DNA of 6,093 nucleotides from Bryobacterales bacterium (GTDB lineage: Bacteria; Acidobacteriota; Terriglobia; Bryobacterales; Bryobacteraceae). The stretch's first letter is position 1. Each line of letters opens with the position of its first letter. The translations under genes and the position numbers were made by a program. The notes under the pieces were generated by a model. The model was not told the DNA's origin, did no database searches, and saw nothing but the letters and a program-made list of their open reading frames with translations. Where the stretch lies: positions 1-6,093 of the forward strand of contig PKYZ01000621.1 of assembly GCA_003132865.1 (NCBI GenBank), given 5' to 3'. Shown here piece after piece: positions 423 to 6,057 of the stretch.

Positions 423-641
423 CCCGAAGCTGCCACGCTCGAAGCTGCTCTCAACTTGGTGGATGTCCTGGTTCCCTCAAGAGAACTGTACGGCGAAGCA
501 TTTCTGCTGGCCCGGACTACGCGCCGACCCGCGTACGACATGTTCTACGTGGCACTGGCACGCCGTGAGGATGCCACTCTCCTCACCACCGGCGTCCAAT
601 TGCGAAAAGAAGCGGAGCGCCAGGGTATCCGCGTGGCTTAA
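423..641 (+). pseudogene. PIN-domain (VapC-like) toxin, C-terminal remnant
   Basis: The frame is open from just after a TGA at 420-422 to the TAA at 639-641 and gives about 72 residues. They resemble the last half of a VapC-type PIN ribonuclease. Seen: a helix-rich stretch PEAATLEAALNLVDVLVPS, then PAYDMFYVALARRE, matching the family's conserved YDxxYxALA block whose Asp is one of the acidic metal ligands, then the strand TLLTTG and a final helix. In active PIN domains that strand usually ends in TAD or TxD; here the Asp is a Gly. The N-terminal half with the first catalytic Asp is absent, and no other upstream frame supplies it clearly. The only in-frame start is a TTG at 456, well inside the fold. 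I read it as a dead relic. An intact small protein from the TTG cannot be excluded but would lack the active site. Confidence 0.6.
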
Positions 642-762: not shown

Positions 763-3700
763 TCACTGGCGGACCCACAGAATCGCCGCGTTCGATGTAG
801 CGCCGCCAATTGAGATGACCACTGGCACTTCCTGAGCCGCACCCTGCGCGGACGCCGAACCAGGCACCTGAACGTTCACCTGGTACTCGCCTACAAGGCC
901 GGGAACAAGCCCGGCAAACGCGACCGGTGCGAACCCGCCGTTGACGGTTACCGTCGGCGTCGTGGTGGTCGTGGCCAGCGGGTTGCCCGGCGCCGGATGC
1001 CCCGTCGCCGGCTGATTAGTCACCGCCCCGAGGCCCGTGCAGAAGATCTGAACCGTGTCTCCCGGATTCGCTGGATTCGACGAACCCACCAGCCGGTATC
1101 CGGCATCCAGAATCGCGCCCTGTCCGCCGCCGCTTGCATCCATCGTAAAGATGGCTGGTGCAAATGGCGCGAGGTTCACGGTTCGTGCCGCGCTGGTCTG
1201 GCCGTTCACGCTGCCCACCAGAGACGCCTGCGTCTGCCCCGCCAGTTCCCACGGAACTTGCACGTTCACCTGGCCGCTGGACGCGTAAAACAACGGGGCG
1301 GCCACTCCGCCGAACTGTAGCGATAAACCGGAAAGGGTATTGGGCAGCGGCAGAGCCTGAGCGCTGGCCACGGAATTCAGCAGAAAGCTGCCAAACACCG
1401 CCGCGATGCTTCCCGGAGCGACCGATGCGGCATAGCTGCCCGCGTTTACGGCGCCGTCCGCCCCCACCGCCAGGCCGGCCGATGGCAGAGCAATCGTCGC
1501 CAGGTCACTCGCGCCAGTTGCCGGCGAACCGCCGCCCGTCACACTCACTTGGTTGATCGTCTGGCCCACCGGACTCACCTGCGCCGTTATGGCGATGGGC
1601 GCATAGCTGGCCCCCGCACTCAACCTATCGCTGCGAGTGCACGTGTTCGAAGCGCAACTCCACCCGTCGCCCGACATCCCTCCGACGGTCACACCGGCCG
1701 GCGGGATCTCGCTGACGCTCACCGCGCCGCTCGTGGCTCCGGCTCCAACGGCATTGCTCACCACCACGGACCATTTCGATCCCGGTTGCCCCGCCGTGAA
1801 ATTGCCGGCATGCGACAGCGTGGCGCCCAGAACGGCACGGGAGCCCAGCGGCACAAACATACGCACCGTGCCCGCGATGCCATCCGTGACGAACAGATCT
1901 CCCGCCCGGTCCACCGTCACGCCGTGGGGTAATACGATGCCCGATCCCGCCACGGTCGTGATTGTGCCATCCGGCGCCACCTGGCGCACGGGACCAAACT
2001 GGGAGTCGGCGATATACAGGTTGCCTGCGGCGTCCACGGCCACGTCATTGGGGCCGAGGAGCTGGGCCGCTGTCGCCAGTCCTCCATCGCCGGAAAAGCC
2101 ACCCACTCCCGTGCCCGCAATCGTCGTAATGCTGCCGTCCGTTGCCACTTTGCGGACCCGGTAGTTTCCCGTGTCGGCGATGTACACGTCGCCGGCGCCA
2201 TCCACGGCAACGCCGGACGGAAAGTTGAGCGCGGCAGCGGCGGCAGGGCCACCGTCGCCCGAGTAGCCTTGGCTTCCGGTCCCGGCAATTGTGCCGATCG
2301 TGCCGTCCGCCGACACTTTGCGGATCTGGCTTCCCCACGATTCGGCGACATAGAAATTGCCCGCTGCGTCCGTCGTCACACCAACGGGAACCATGAGCTG
2401 CGCGGCCGTCGCCGGTCCCCCATCACCGGCATCTCCCCACACGGCGCTACCCGCCGCCGTGCTGATGATCCCGGCTGGAGAGACCTTCCGAACCCGGGCG
2501 TTGTCGGAATCGGCGATCAGCAGGTTGTCTTCGGCGTCCACCGCTACTCCCTGGGGCGCATTCAGGCTGGCGCCGGTAGCCTGGCCTCCGTCCCCTGAAT
2601 AGCCTGCCGCGCCAGTGCCCGCGACTGTAGATATGACGCCGTCGGGGTTCACCCTGCGGACGCGGTTGTTCAAGGAGTCCCCGATATAAACGTTGCCGCC
2701 CCCATCCAGGGCCACGCCCCACGGAGAGTACAGCAAAGCGCTGGTGGCTGGACCTCCGTCGCCCCACCAGGCCGTGCCGTTGCCAGCGTATGTCGACAGT
2801 GCGCCTCCAGTGTTCACCTTGCGGATCCGGCTGTTCCACGTATCGGCAATATAATGGTTGCCAGCCGTATCTGCCGCGACGCCGTTCGGAAAACTGAGTT
2901 GTCCCGCGCCCGCCGGACCACCATCGCCTGCGTAACCGAGTTTCCCATCGCCAGCCACGGTGGTGATCGTGCCATTCGGCGCCACCCTGCGAATCACGTA
3001 GTTATTCGTGTCGGCGATGTACAGCGCACCGGCCGCATCCAGCGAGATGCCATTTGGAGAATTGAGCTGGGCCGCCGGCGCCGGACCGCCATCGCCGGAG
3101 TATCCCGCAACGCTCGTACCCGCCACGGTGTTAATGGTACCGTTGGCTCCGATCCTGCGGACCCGATTACTCATGTTTTCCGCAATGTAGACATTGCCGG
3201 ACGCGTCCACGGCGATGCCAGCCAGGGAGTTCAACTGAGCGCTCGTAGCCGGCCCTCCATCGCCCGAATCGCCGGTAACACCCGTGCCTGCGATGGTGGT
3301 TAACGCGCCGTTGGCAGCCACGCGAAGGACCGCGGCCGGCTCCGCAATGTAGAGGTTGCCGGACCCGTCCACAGCGACGGCCGTCGGATAGTCGAGGGAT
3401 GGGTTGAGCAACGGGCTGCGCACGCCAAAGTACGCCGAGGAGCCATTGAGGATCAGGGACGTGATCACCCCGTTCGGCCCAATCCGCCGGATGGTCCCGT
3501 TACCCGAGTCCGCGACGTAGAGATTGCCGGCGCCATCTATCGCAGGGCCCTGCGGATTGCTGAACTGGGCGCTGGTGGCCGGGCCTCCATCGCCGGAGTA
3601 CCCTGGGCTCGCCGAATTTCCGGCCACGCGCGTCGCGGTGCCGCCGGGATCCACCTGGAAAACACAGTTCATTGCCGTAAAATACAGGTTCCCCGACGAA

Positions 3701-3882
3701 TCAGCCACTATCGAATGCGGGTAAGCGACAGGCGTGCCCACAGCCGTGGCCGGCGTCGCAGGCAGGCCGCCCCCGGCAATCGTGGTTGCGACATATTGCG
3801 ACGTCTGTCCGAGGCACAGGCCCCCGGCAAAACAGACGAATGCTGCCACCGGCAGGCGGTGGACACCAGAATAAGCAGCCAT
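763..3882 (-). CDS. Secreted NHL-repeat beta-propeller protein with Solibacter-type C-terminal domain
   Basis: The product has 1039 residues. Residues 1-25 form a signal peptide: a short region with His and Arg, then a hydrophobic core LPVAAFVCFAGGLCLG. The Cys in GGLC is not a proper lipobox. Residues about 55-680 hold twelve NHL units of the type SPNGISLDAAGALYIADTN, most joined by a linker like GYSGDGGPATSAQL. NHL units form six-bladed propellers, so two domains in tandem are plausible. Residues 681-801 look like a DUF11-like beta-sandwich, with a likely disulfide in WSCASNTCTR. Residues 802-1039 match the C-terminal domain typical of Solibacter secreted proteins (TIGR03437 type): VNAGSYA near the start, GQVNVQVPWE, FCTGLGAVTNQPA and GEYQVNVQVP. 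It probably acts outside the cytoplasm, in binding rather than catalysis; no catalytic motif is visible and the ligand is unknown. The ATG at 3882 has a good ribosome site. It lies 164 bp downstream of the full zinc-ribbon frame of the sigma operon, on the same strand. Confidence 0.92.
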   Translation of the reverse strand: MAAYSGVHRLPVAAFVCFAGGLCLGQTSQYVATTIAGGGLPATPATAVGTPVAYPHSIVADSSGNLYFTAMNCVFQVDPGGTATRVAGNSASPGYSGDGGPATSAQFSNPQGPAIDGAGNLYVADSGNGTIRRIGPNGVITSLILNGSSAYFGVRSPLLNPSLDYPTAVAVDGSGNLYIAEPAAVLRVAANGALTTIAGTGVTGDSGDGGPATSAQLNSLAGIAVDASGNVYIAENMSNRVRRIGANGTINTVAGTSVAGYSGDGGPAPAAQLNSPNGISLDAAGALYIADTNNYVIRRVAPNGTITTVAGDGKLGYAGDGGPAGAGQLSFPNGVAADTAGNHYIADTWNSRIRKVNTGGALSTYAGNGTAWWGDGGPATSALLYSPWGVALDGGGNVYIGDSLNNRVRRVNPDGVISTVAGTGAAGYSGDGGQATGASLNAPQGVAVDAEDNLLIADSDNARVRKVSPAGIISTAAGSAVWGDAGDGGPATAAQLMVPVGVTTDAAGNFYVAESWGSQIRKVSADGTIGTIAGTGSQGYSGDGGPAAAAALNFPSGVAVDGAGDVYIADTGNYRVRKVATDGSITTIAGTGVGGFSGDGGLATAAQLLGPNDVAVDAAGNLYIADSQFGPVRQVAPDGTITTVAGSGIVLPHGVTVDRAGDLFVTDGIAGTVRMFVPLGSRAVLGATLSHAGNFTAGQPGSKWSVVVSNAVGAGATSGAVSVSEIPPAGVTVGGMSGDGWSCASNTCTRSDRLSAGASYAPIAITAQVSPVGQTINQVSVTGGGSPATGASDLATIALPSAGLAVGADGAVNAGSYAASVAPGSIAAVFGSFLLNSVASAQALPLPNTLSGLSLQFGGVAAPLFYASSGQVNVQVPWELAGQTQASLVGSVNGQTSAARTVNLAPFAPAIFTMDASGGGQGAILDAGYRLVGSSNPANPGDTVQIFCTGLGAVTNQPATGHPAPGNPLATTTTTPTVTVNGGFAPVAFAGLVPGLVGEYQVNVQVPGSASAQGAAQEVPVVISIGGATSNAAILWVRQ
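1843..3720 (-). repeat. Array of twelve NHL-unit coding repeats
   Basis: These bases encode the propeller part of the secreted protein. Each unit is about 50-55 residues including its linker, with the pattern xPxGVAVDxxGNLYIADxxNxRVRKVxxDGxITTVAG. The linker GDGG followed by x-A occurs nine times. It is missing between units 2 and 3, where a longer, different loop stands, and between units 11 and 12, where the spacing is short. Unit 12 (LPHGVTVDRAGDLFVTDG) is the most degenerate. The linker is nearly constant while blade surfaces vary (TNNYVIRR, TWNSRIRK, SWGSQIRK), as expected of unit duplication followed by divergence. Confidence 0.85.
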
Positions 3883-4046: not shown

Positions 4047-4115
4047 TCACGCCGCCGTAAGCGATGCGCCGCAGTGCGCGCAGTGCGTCCAGTTCGGCTC
4101 CACGGCGCGGCGGCA
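4047..4115 (-). pseudogene. Severed second zinc ribbon beyond an in-frame amber stop
   Basis: Directly after the TAG at 4118-4116 the frame of the zinc-ribbon membrane protein continues for 22 sense codons to a TGA at 4049-4047. It reads CRRAVEPNWTHCAHCGASL and then TAA in one-letter amino acids. With the Cys two codons before the stop (HACP) this makes a second CxxC-x10-CxxC ribbon, with the same spacing as the first. The coding sense is preserved to the end, so it was part of the protein until recently, or is still made by readthrough or after correction of a sequencing error. It has no start of its own. Confidence 0.7.
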
Positions 4116-4529
4116 CTACGGGCAGGCATGCGCCAGAGCCCCGCCGCACTTCGGACAAAACGCGAAGCCCTGCCGCACCTGCGCGCCGCAATGCGTGCAA
4201 TTCACCAGCAACGGGTCGCGCAGGACGAAGTACAGGATGATCCCGATGGCGTTGGGGATCAGGGCCGCCAGCCAGGTCCACATCACGTAGCGCATGCCGC
4301 GCCGCTTCGCGTCGGCGTAGACGTAGCCGACCACCAATACCAAGGCGAACATCGATAGCCCCGGCAGCGCGGCCATCGCCATCTTACCTGCCAACGGCCA
4401 GTCGCGGAGCCCCGGATCGTGCCGGAAGGGCAGCAACATCATCAGCAGGAAGAACGCCAGCCACACGCACACGGCGATGGCGACCGCCGTGCGGGGCACT
4501 ATTTTCACTTCGTCTCGAAAGCGACTCAT
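4116..4529 (-). CDS. Membrane protein with C-terminal zinc ribbon, cut short by an amber codon
   Basis: As written the product has 137 residues. Three membrane segments can be seen at about 12-33, 54-73 and 82-103. The stretch DAKRRGMRYVMWTWLAALIP, followed by NAIGIILYFVLRDPLL, resembles small PLDc_N-like membrane proteins. A zinc ribbon follows: C111-TH-C114, ten residues, C125-PK-C128. The chain then ends at HACP with TAG, inside the first CxxC of a second ribbon; the full frame would be 160 residues (4047-4529). Every intact gene here stops with TGA, so the TAG is out of keeping. The start is well supported: ATG overlaps the anti-sigma TGA as ATGA, and GAGGAGG (4535-4541) lies five bases upstream. 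As the third gene of the sigma/anti-sigma operon it probably works at the membrane in the same signalling unit, through protein or nucleic-acid contacts of the ribbon. Its exact role is unknown to me. Confidence 0.8.
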   Translation of the reverse strand: MSRFRDEVKIVPRTAVAIAVCVWLAFFLLMMLLPFRHDPGLRDWPLAGKMAMAALPGLSMFALVLVVGYVYADAKRRGMRYVMWTWLAALIPNAIGIILYFVLRDPLLVNCTHCGAQVRQGFAFCPKCGGALAHACP

Positions 4530-5020
4530 AACGTCCTCCTCAATTCGCGGCGGCGTCTTCCCAGAGCGATGGCCGCCACCGCCGCGGTCATCCACACCAG
4601 CACAGTCGAGCCCGCGGACCAGGTTCCGAACCGGACCAAGTTGGCGCCCATGACGACCAGTTCGCCGCCGGTCACGATGCGCGCCACAAACCAGAAGGTC
4701 AGTCCCACGGTCCAGGCAAACAGGGCCAGGGCGCCCAGCATCAACTCGTCCCACCGGCGGTCGGCGGCGGCGGCGCGCTCCTGCACCAGGCGCGTCCGCG
4801 TGCGCTCCATCAACCGCGTGGGGATCGGCGGTTGGGGGAGCTGCCGCAGGCCCTGCGAATAGCCGCTCCAGATTTCCAACTCGCGCCGGCATGCCGGACA
4901 TTCCCGGGCATGCTCTTCCAGGCGCCGCTGCTCCTGGACATCGAGCGCTCCGGCGGCTGCCAGCGCCAACATCCCGGCGCTGGCTTGGTGGAATGCTTGA
5001 TGGGATTCCTGTTCGCTCAT
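4526..5020 (-). CDS. Membrane-bound zinc-binding (ZAS-type) anti-sigma factor
   Basis: The product has 164 residues. The N-terminal cytoplasmic part carries the zinc-associated anti-sigma signature H37-x3-C41-x2-C44 (HARECPAC), set in helices of the kind ALDVQEQRRLEEHA that wrap around ECF sigma factors in this family. A basic linker with PxP residues (about 60-90) leads to two membrane segments at about 94-116 and 137-153, and a short basic tail RRRRELRRTL. The inferred role is to hold the sigma factor encoded just upstream inactive at the membrane. With two close membrane segments and almost no periplasmic domain, sensing may happen in the membrane or through a partner, perhaps the third gene. 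Its ATG overlaps the sigma stop as ATGA, and AGGAGG (5030-5035) lies nine bases upstream within the sigma gene, so the pair is coupled and made in matched amounts. Confidence 0.88.
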   Translation of the reverse strand: MSEQESHQAFHQASAGMLALAAAGALDVQEQRRLEEHARECPACRRELEIWSGYSQGLRQLPQPPIPTRLMERTRTRLVQERAAAADRRWDELMLGALALFAWTVGLTFWFVARIVTGGELVVMGANLVRFGTWSAGSTVLVWMTAAVAAIALGRRRRELRRTL

Positions 5021-5613
5021 GCTCTCCGTCCTCCTGGAGACCGTGCGTCCATTGCCGCGCGCAACCCTTCCAGCGCGCGCCGCAAACGGCTTTTCACTGT
5101 CGAAAGCGGGACGCCGGCCACCTCCGCGATCTCCTCCAGCTTCATATCTTCTTCAAAGCGCAATGTCAGCACCTCGCGGTGGATGGCGGGCAATTCGTGC
5201 ATGCAAGCCGCCAGCATGGCGCCGCGCTCGAAGTCCAGCAGGCGCTCGAGCGCGTCCGGATCGCCGGTGCGCAGCCGCTCGCCGGGGGGCCCGCCGGAAT
5301 CGCCCGCATCACCTGCATCATGGAGGCTTTCGCCGCGCTTGCCGCGCCAGGAGTCGATGGCCAGGTTGTGGGCCACCGAAAATAGCCACGACTCAAAATT
5401 GCGGCGTGCGTCGTAGGGGCCAATCTTTTCCATCACCCGCAGCCAGGTTTGCTGAAACAGGTCGTCGGCCGCCGCGGGTTCCCGCACCAAGCGCAGCAAA
5501 TAGCGGTACAGCCTGTGCTGGTAGCGCGAGATCATGGCCGTCAATGCGTCTGGATCTCCCCGACGCATACGGGCGATGGCGTCTTGCGCGCCGCTGAATG
5601 CCTCCGGATTCAT
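5017..5613 (-). CDS. ECF-type RNA polymerase sigma factor (sigma-70 family)
   Basis: From the ATG at 5613 the product has 198 residues. Sigma region 2 covers about residues 28-92: LTAMISRYQHRLYRYLLRLV, the core-binding DDLFQQTWLRVMEKI, and the -10-recognising NFESWLFSVAHNLAIDSWR. A flexible Gly/Asp-rich linker follows (GDAGDSGGPPGE). Sigma region 4 covers about 138-186, with LPAIHREVLTLRF and the helix-turn-helix LEEIAEVAGVPLSTVKSRLR that reads the -35 element. It should direct RNA polymerase to its own set of promoters once released by the anti-sigma factor. The start is uncertain. In-frame ATGs lie at 5673, 5631 and 5613 and none has a good ribosome site. I prefer 5613 (MNPEAFSGAQ) because the 5673 start would leave only 30 bases to the divergent STAS gene; 5631 remains possible. 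First gene of the operon; the subgroup is not assigned. Confidence 0.9.
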   Translation of the reverse strand: MNPEAFSGAQDAIARMRRGDPDALTAMISRYQHRLYRYLLRLVREPAAADDLFQQTWLRVMEKIGPYDARRNFESWLFSVAHNLAIDSWRGKRGESLHDAGDAGDSGGPPGERLRTGDPDALERLLDFERGAMLAACMHELPAIHREVLTLRFEEDMKLEEIAEVAGVPLSTVKSRLRRALEGLRAAMDARSPGGRRA

Positions 5614-5703
5614 AGCCGCCGCGAGGATCATACCACTATCCCGTATACGGATGGCCCCCGCAAAAAGACCCATCCGGCATATACTGGTGGGGGACTGCGC
5701 TCA
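5614..5703. promoter_or_regulatory. Divergent control region between sigma operon and STAS gene
   Basis: These 90 bases must hold the promoters of both divergent genes if the sigma start is 5613. A perfect 10-bp palindrome, CCGTATACGG, lies at 5641-5650 and could be an operator. On the minus strand TTGCGG, 17 bases, GATAGT is a weak sigma-70-like pair; transcription would then begin close to the 5631 ATG, so a leaderless message is possible. On the plus strand TATACT (5680-5685) is a fair -10 but has no matching -35 and lies close to the STAS start. GGTGGGGG ten bases before 5704 may serve as the STAS ribosome site. The element similar to the NHL upstream region is at 5625-5642. All of this is read by eye. 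Confidence 0.35.
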
Positions 5704-6057
5704 ATGGCACTGGAAATCAATCAAAAAGAGGTCGCGCCCGCGACGGTGGTGATCTCGCTCGAAGGCAGCGTGATGCGCGGGCCGGAGGGCGAGCGAATCG
5801 AGGCGGTGTTGAATGGCGCACTTGCCCAAGGGCTGAAGCGCATCGTCTTCGACATGACCGGGGTCAAGCGCATCGACAGCACGGGCATCGGCCGGTTCAT
5901 CTACTGCCTGAATAAAGTGCAGGAGAGCGGCGGCAAGCTGTGGATGGCGGGCGCGCAGGGATACGTGCGCGAGTGTTTCCGGGTCACGCGCCTGGATACC
6001 ATCTTCCAGTTTTGCGGGACGGTGGAGGATGCTTTGGCCGCGAATCAACGCGGGTGA
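5704..6057 (+). CDS. STAS-domain protein, anti-sigma factor antagonist family
   Basis: The product has 117 residues, the usual size of a stand-alone SpoIIAA/RsbV-like STAS domain. Seen: the N-terminal strands VVISLEGSVMRGPEGERIEA, the helix EAVLNGALAQGL, the strand RIVFDMTGVKRID, and the diagnostic D58-S59-T-G-I-G loop where partner kinases phosphorylate the Ser in this family. The strand GGKLWMAGA and a final helix FCGTVEDALAANQ complete the fold. Known for the family: the unphosphorylated form binds an anti-sigma factor/kinase of the SpoIIAB/RsbW type and frees its sigma factor. No such kinase is encoded in this window, so the partner is unknown and probably elsewhere. It is transcribed away from the ECF operon. 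The ATG at 5704 is the first start outside the sigma gene; the in-frame extension upstream runs antisense through that gene and is not real. Confidence 0.88.
   Translation: MALEINQKEVAPATVVISLEGSVMRGPEGERIEAVLNGALAQGLKRIVFDMTGVKRIDSTGIGRFIYCLNKVQESGGKLWMAGAQGYVRECFRVTRLDTIFQFCGTVEDALAANQRG

What the first reader, a model, noticed from the sequence alone, without database searches (positions are those of the whole stretch)
4047..4529. In-frame amber codon splits a double zinc ribbon in the sigma-operon membrane protein
The protein ends at HACP-TAG, yet the next 22 codons in the same frame begin with Cys and complete a second CxxC-x10-CxxC ribbon with spacing identical to the first (C111/C114/C125/C128 versus C136/C139/C150/C153). 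The stop sits at an x position of a CxxC, where a single base change from codons such as CAG, AAG, TAC or TGG would give TAG. The intact genes here all end in TGA. Options: a very recent nonsense mutation, a sequencing error, or regulated readthrough giving a one-ribbon and a two-ribbon form. The two forms would differ in metal binding and could alter signalling.
Basis: partly seen in the sequence, partly recalled or inferred. Interest (0 to 1): 0.72.

Follow-up and report, generated by a model that had tools for sequence, protein, structure and literature searches.

The report
Lone stop codon in zinc-ribbon gene
A bacterial gene for a small membrane protein with two zinc-binding loops carries a stop codon just before its last 22 codons; the relatives compared here lack that stop, so it is most likely a fresh truncating mutation or a sequencing error rather than a new regulatory switch.

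Summary
The minus-strand gene starting at 4529 meets TAG at 4118-4116 (codon 138), then stays open for 22 codons that complete a second CxxC-x10-CxxC ribbon and end in TGA at 4049-4047.

The tail is once-coding sequence. Of the 120 listed homologues, 119 have a sense residue at 138 (Gln in 93); the other (P0106) diverges before it. Including the tail raises the best hit from 277 to 324 bits and lifts Pfam DZR over its cut-off. DNA similarity to the nearest genome (88%) ends at the downstream TGA. The tail shows no more decay than in intact relatives.

Nothing supports conserved recoding. No relative examined has a stop here, TAG ends this gene in 12 of 54 relatives, and no RNA fold stands out.

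Best reading: a recent private nonsense change giving a one-ribbon protein. The main rival is a base-call or assembly error; no reads or whole genome are held. Eight of 56 distinct relatives naturally have one ribbon, so truncation may be tolerated. Ordinary; low interest.

The parts
4119..4529 (-). Open frame up to the stop: hydrophobic N-terminal part plus zinc ribbon 1, 137 codons; its ATG overlaps the stop of the anti-sigma gene (ATGA)
4146..4199 (-). Zinc ribbon 1, Cys 111/114/125/128
4116..4118 (-). In-frame TAG, codon 138, inside the CxxC that opens ribbon 2
4071..4124 (-). Zinc ribbon 2, Cys 136/139/150/153, split by the TAG
4050..4115 (-). 22 in-frame codons after the TAG, homologous to the C-terminus of the family
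4047..4049 (-). TGA closing the longer frame (160 codons, the length of 66 of the 120 listed homologues); DNA similarity to L001 ends here
4526..5020 (-). Anti-sigma factor with zf-HC2 domain
   Evidence: PF13490 over cut-off
5017..5673 (-). ECF-type sigma-70 factor
   Evidence: TIGR02937 over cut-off
5704..6057 (+). Divergent STAS-domain protein (anti-sigma antagonist-like)

Best explanation
The gene belongs to a family of membrane-anchored double-zinc-ribbon proteins that lie downstream of an ECF sigma factor and its anti-sigma factor. In this sequence it has acquired a private, recent nonsense codon inside the first CxxC of ribbon 2. If the base is real, the cell makes a 137-residue protein with ribbon 1 intact and ribbon 2 missing, with at most a little full-length protein from ordinary leaky termination. 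Shown: the anatomy, the ancestry of the tail, and the absence of the stop in the relatives examined. Inferred: that the base is real, that ribbon 2 is lost from most of the product, and that the short protein keeps part of its function, as one-ribbon relatives exist. What the protein does in the sigma pathway is not shown; a zinc- or redox-responsive partner of the anti-sigma factor is a guess from gene position.
For: Residue 138 is a sense residue in 119 of the 120 listed homologues (Gln 93, Lys 9, Arg 4, Asn 4, His 3, Glu 2, four singletons); the 120th, P0106, matches residues 1-92 and then diverges. Score of the best hit rises from 277 to 324 bits when the tail is included; Pfam DZR from 22.8 (cut-off 27.3) to 40.3 bits. 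Blastn to the nearest genome locus, L001, is 88% over 2030 columns and ends at window 4047. Tail-to-body divergence is 1.33 for the window and 0.84 to 1.54 for the ten closest listed proteins, so no sign of long decay. Four other genes in the window are open throughout. No stop inside any of 28 matches or any match row printed (172 of 399 genomes matched; list truncated). Eight of 56 distinct relatives carry one ribbon only.
Against: No second copy of the same strain across the stop was found, and no reads are held, so a base error is not excluded. Tail residue Asn146 is unusual (5 of 119 homologues), and second-codon-position differences to L013 (same genome and gene as L001) are somewhat higher in the tail (4 of 21 against 8 of 137, p = 0.056; other comparisons p = 0.17 to 0.77): this could hint at a slightly older stop or simply at a variable tail.
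Confidence: 0.6

Rival explanations
1. Base-calling, consensus or assembly error: the organism has an intact two-ribbon gene and the TAG is not there.
For: The tail is not measurably decayed, the stop is private to this record among the homologues listed, and the rest of the coding sequence is open, which is just what one wrong base would look like. P0106, a 704-bp contig identical over residues 1-92 and then different, suggests that assemblies can break in this gene.
Against: Nothing direct. No other frame break was seen in the five genes tabulated, so the record is not generally poor; one isolated error remains possible.
Confidence: 0.34
2. Regulated or programmed readthrough of TAG gives a one-ribbon and a two-ribbon form.
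For: The tail still looks coding. In E. coli, unprogrammed readthrough reaches up to 6% under normal conditions, with TGA > TAG > TAA (PMC11126739; abstract, outline and 12 passages seen).
Against: No relative examined has a stop here. TAG terminates this same gene in 12 of 54 relatives. The 100 nt from the stop on fold no better than shuffles (z 0.50; five relatives -2.10 to 0.20). In the same paper a T downstream of the stop lowered readthrough at the three positions tested; the base after this TAG is T. Pyrrolysyl-tRNA synthetase passes its cut-off in 0 of 237 genomes of the family of L001's genome (sub-cut-off matches in 202 of 237 and in control genomes).
Confidence: 0.05
3. The one-ribbon end is this lineage's normal, functional C-terminus and the tail is a chance open frame.
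For: One-ribbon relatives exist: 8 of 56 distinct relatives, and 5 of the 6 of these that one search kept have a sigma gene upstream.
Against: The closest relatives all have two ribbons; the tail matches them residue by residue, and shuffles never gave the Cys pattern. The one-ribbon relatives have no ribbon-2 remnant downstream and match at 33-56% identity only.
Confidence: 0.01

Closest known systems
Double zinc ribbon proteins (Pfam PF12773 DZR) beside ECF sigma / anti-sigma genes in Acidobacteriota
   Same: Same length (160 codons if the TAG is passed), same eight Cys, same gene order; nearest named record 'MAG: double zinc ribbon domain-containing protein [Bryobacteraceae bacterium]' (P0019); nearest genome locus L001, Bryobacterales bacterium bog_159
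   Different: A TAG stands at codon 138 here and in no relative examined
One-ribbon relatives in the same class (L014, L031, L032, L033, L036, L037, L038, L040)
   Same: One CxxC-x10-CxxC ribbon after the hydrophobic part; five of the six kept follow a sigma gene
   Different: Their ends show no trace of ribbon 2; here ribbon 2 is intact behind the stop
Ordinary nonsense alleles and recent pseudogenes
   Same: Private stop, undecayed downstream frame
   Different: Only the last 23 of 160 codons are affected, so a stable shorter protein is possible

Membership tests
Pfam DZR (PF12773) | Profile score over the curated cut-off of 27.3 bits | tested here: inconclusive
   Met only if the stop is passed as X: 40.3 bits; the 137-residue product scores 22.8
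Pfam DZR (PF12773) | Two CxxC-x(n)-CxxC ribbons | tested here: met
   At DNA level both ribbons are present, the second split by TAG
ECF sigma / anti-sigma operon | Sigma-70 regions 2 and 4, followed by a zf-HC2 anti-sigma gene | tested here: met
   PF04542, PF04545 and PF13490 over cut-off; ATGA overlaps between the three genes; among 54 relatives a sigma gene is found upstream on the same strand in 51 and a recognisable anti-sigma in 38
Programmed stop-codon readthrough | Stop conserved across relatives with a conserved downstream frame | tested here: not met
   0 of 119 homologues that cover the position have a stop there
Programmed stop-codon readthrough | Stimulatory RNA structure after the stop | tested here: not met
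   z-score 0.50; only simple secondary structure was tested
Programmed stop-codon readthrough | Extended protein detected | not testable with these tools
   No proteome data
Amber suppression or pyrrolysine decoding | Suppressor tRNA or PylS in the same genome | tested here: inconclusive
   No genome is held for the window; no tRNA in the window; PylS over cut-off in 0 of 237 related genomes

The most novel reading that the evidence does not exclude
A lineage-specific leaky amber codon has recently turned a two-ribbon regulator into a mix of one-ribbon and two-ribbon forms, set by termination efficiency (growth state, temperature).
Probability: 0.04. Interest if true: 0.55.

Novelty: new member of a known kind. 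Interest (0 to 1): 0.14.

Why it matters
Little on its own: it shows that homologue comparison settles a stop-splits-domain observation quickly. If the stop is real, it is a natural test of whether ribbon 2 of this sigma-linked family is dispensable, a question that the natural one-ribbon relatives also raise.

Tried and rejected
Rejected: the tail as a chance open frame; TAG read as a sense codon throughout the genome (35 of 1,040 codons of the largest gene are Gln codons with no in-frame TAG there, none in the three other complete genes, and relatives use TAG as terminator); RNA-structure-driven readthrough; a viral source (7 stretches matched a pattern, none encodes a relative); an Rfam element (none at gathering score); a tRNA in the window (none).

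Led nowhere: whole-genome check of the window (none held); literature on ECF sigma plus zinc ribbon in Acidobacteria (0 papers hold all terms), on amber readthrough plus zinc ribbon (1 paper, on HIV, seen as a listing only), on premature stops in metagenome-assembled genomes (0). Searches gave listings of 3 and 12 papers; of these only PMC11126739 was opened (abstract, outline, passages).

L011 seemed to end at the same codon, but its contig ends there; the L063 row, also matched only to residue 137, appears to be the same place (same end coordinate and contig length as L011; not checked separately). Rows dropped before counts: loci with identical proteins; loci whose match ended before residue 130 (L031 and L033 among them). 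One search's 54 rows include six one-ribbon rows whose column 138 is not truly homologous.

Full report
Observation. On the minus strand the frame from ATG at 4529 runs 137 codons to TAG at 4118-4116, then 22 further codons to TGA at 4049-4047. Cys 111/114/125/128 and 136/139/150/153 form two CxxC-x10-CxxC ribbons; the TAG is the second x of the CxxC at 136-139. The window has no held genome and no tRNA or Rfam match at gathering score.

Surroundings. The gene is the third of an overlapping set: ECF sigma factor (5017-5673), zf-HC2 anti-sigma factor (4526-5020) and this gene, each joined by ATGA, with a divergent STAS gene at 5704-6057. Among 54 distinct relatives examined, a sigma gene lies upstream on the same strand in 51 and a recognisable anti-sigma in 38; the STAS gene is found only at L001. 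Two of the three rows without a sigma hit (L025, L057) begin within 50 bases of the locus start.

The tail is old coding sequence. Of 1385 homologues, the 120 listed were aligned. All eight Cys columns are Cys in every sequence that covers them (118 or 119 of 120). Position 138 is a sense residue in 119: Gln 93, Lys 9, Arg 4, Asn 4, His 3, Glu 2 and one each of Val, Gly, Ala, Ser. The remaining one, P0106, is identical to the window protein over residues 1-92 and then differs, so it says nothing about codon 138. Searching with the tail raises the top hit from 277 to 324 bits. Pfam DZR goes from 22.8 to 40.3 bits, cut-off 27.3. The read-through length, 160 codons, is the length of 66 of the 120 listed homologues. 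Blastn against L001 (Bryobacterales bacterium bog_159) is 88% identical over 2030 columns with 32 gap positions, from the end of the STAS gene to window 4047, the last base of the downstream TGA.

Age of the stop. Compared with the ten best homologues, the tail does not differ significantly more than the body (p 0.14 to 1.00). The ratio of tail to body divergence is 1.33 for the window and 0.84 to 1.54 for those ten intact relatives, so no relaxed decay is visible. Two small signs point the other way: Asn146 is rare (5 of 119), and second-position differences to L013 (the same gene as in L001) are 4 of 21 in the tail against 8 of 137 in the body (p = 0.056). The tail also differs more than ribbon 1 does, but so it does among the intact relatives on average (0.195 against 0.135). 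With 21 codons these tests have little power.

No sign of recoding. None of the 28 matches in 237 genomes of the family of L001's genome, and none of the match rows printed for 399 genomes of its class (172 with a match; the list was truncated; a few rows stop short of codon 138), has a stop inside. TAG is the normal terminator of this gene in 12 of 54 relatives (TGA 28, TAA 13, one contig end). Pyrrolysyl-tRNA synthetase passes its cut-off in 0 of 237 genomes; weaker matches occur in 202 and in control genomes and are, I infer, other class II synthetases. The RNA after the stop folds no better than shuffles (z 0.50; five relatives -2.10 to 0.20). Basal readthrough is known: up to 6% in E. coli under normal conditions, with TGA > TAG > TAA (PMC11126739, passages), so a trace of full-length protein is possible without any regulation.

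Could the short form work? Of 56 distinct relatives, 47 have two ribbons, 8 have one (none with a ribbon-2 remnant in 450 nt downstream) and 1 is cut by its contig end. The one-ribbon relatives match at 33-56% identity. Five of the six of them kept follow a sigma gene. So a one-ribbon protein in this genetic setting is viable in other lineages, and a real truncation here need not be a null allele. This is inference.

Verdict. A private stop in an otherwise intact, well conserved gene: a recent nonsense change (0.60) or a base or assembly error (0.34), with regulated readthrough at 0.05. Reads decide between the first two.

Noticed in passing
window 456-641 (+): A 61-residue ORF resembles the C-terminal part of a PIN domain (PF01850, E 0.0067, below its cut-off) with no N-terminal part in the same ORF; possibly the remnant of a VapC-like gene.
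   Followed up: partly
window 763-3882 (-): A 1039-residue NHL-repeat beta-propeller protein with the Solibacter C-terminal domain TIGR03437 lies downstream; the blastn shows no extended match to it in locus L001.
   Followed up: no
P0106 (ENA contig of 704 bases): Identical to the window protein over residues 1-92, then 16 unrelated residues, none of whose 5-letter words occurs in any frame of the window: a chimeric contig or a strain variant.
   Followed up: partly
L014, L031, L032, L033, L036, L037, L038, L040: Relatives with one zinc ribbon in place of two; whether ribbon 2 was lost or never gained there was not resolved.
   Followed up: partly
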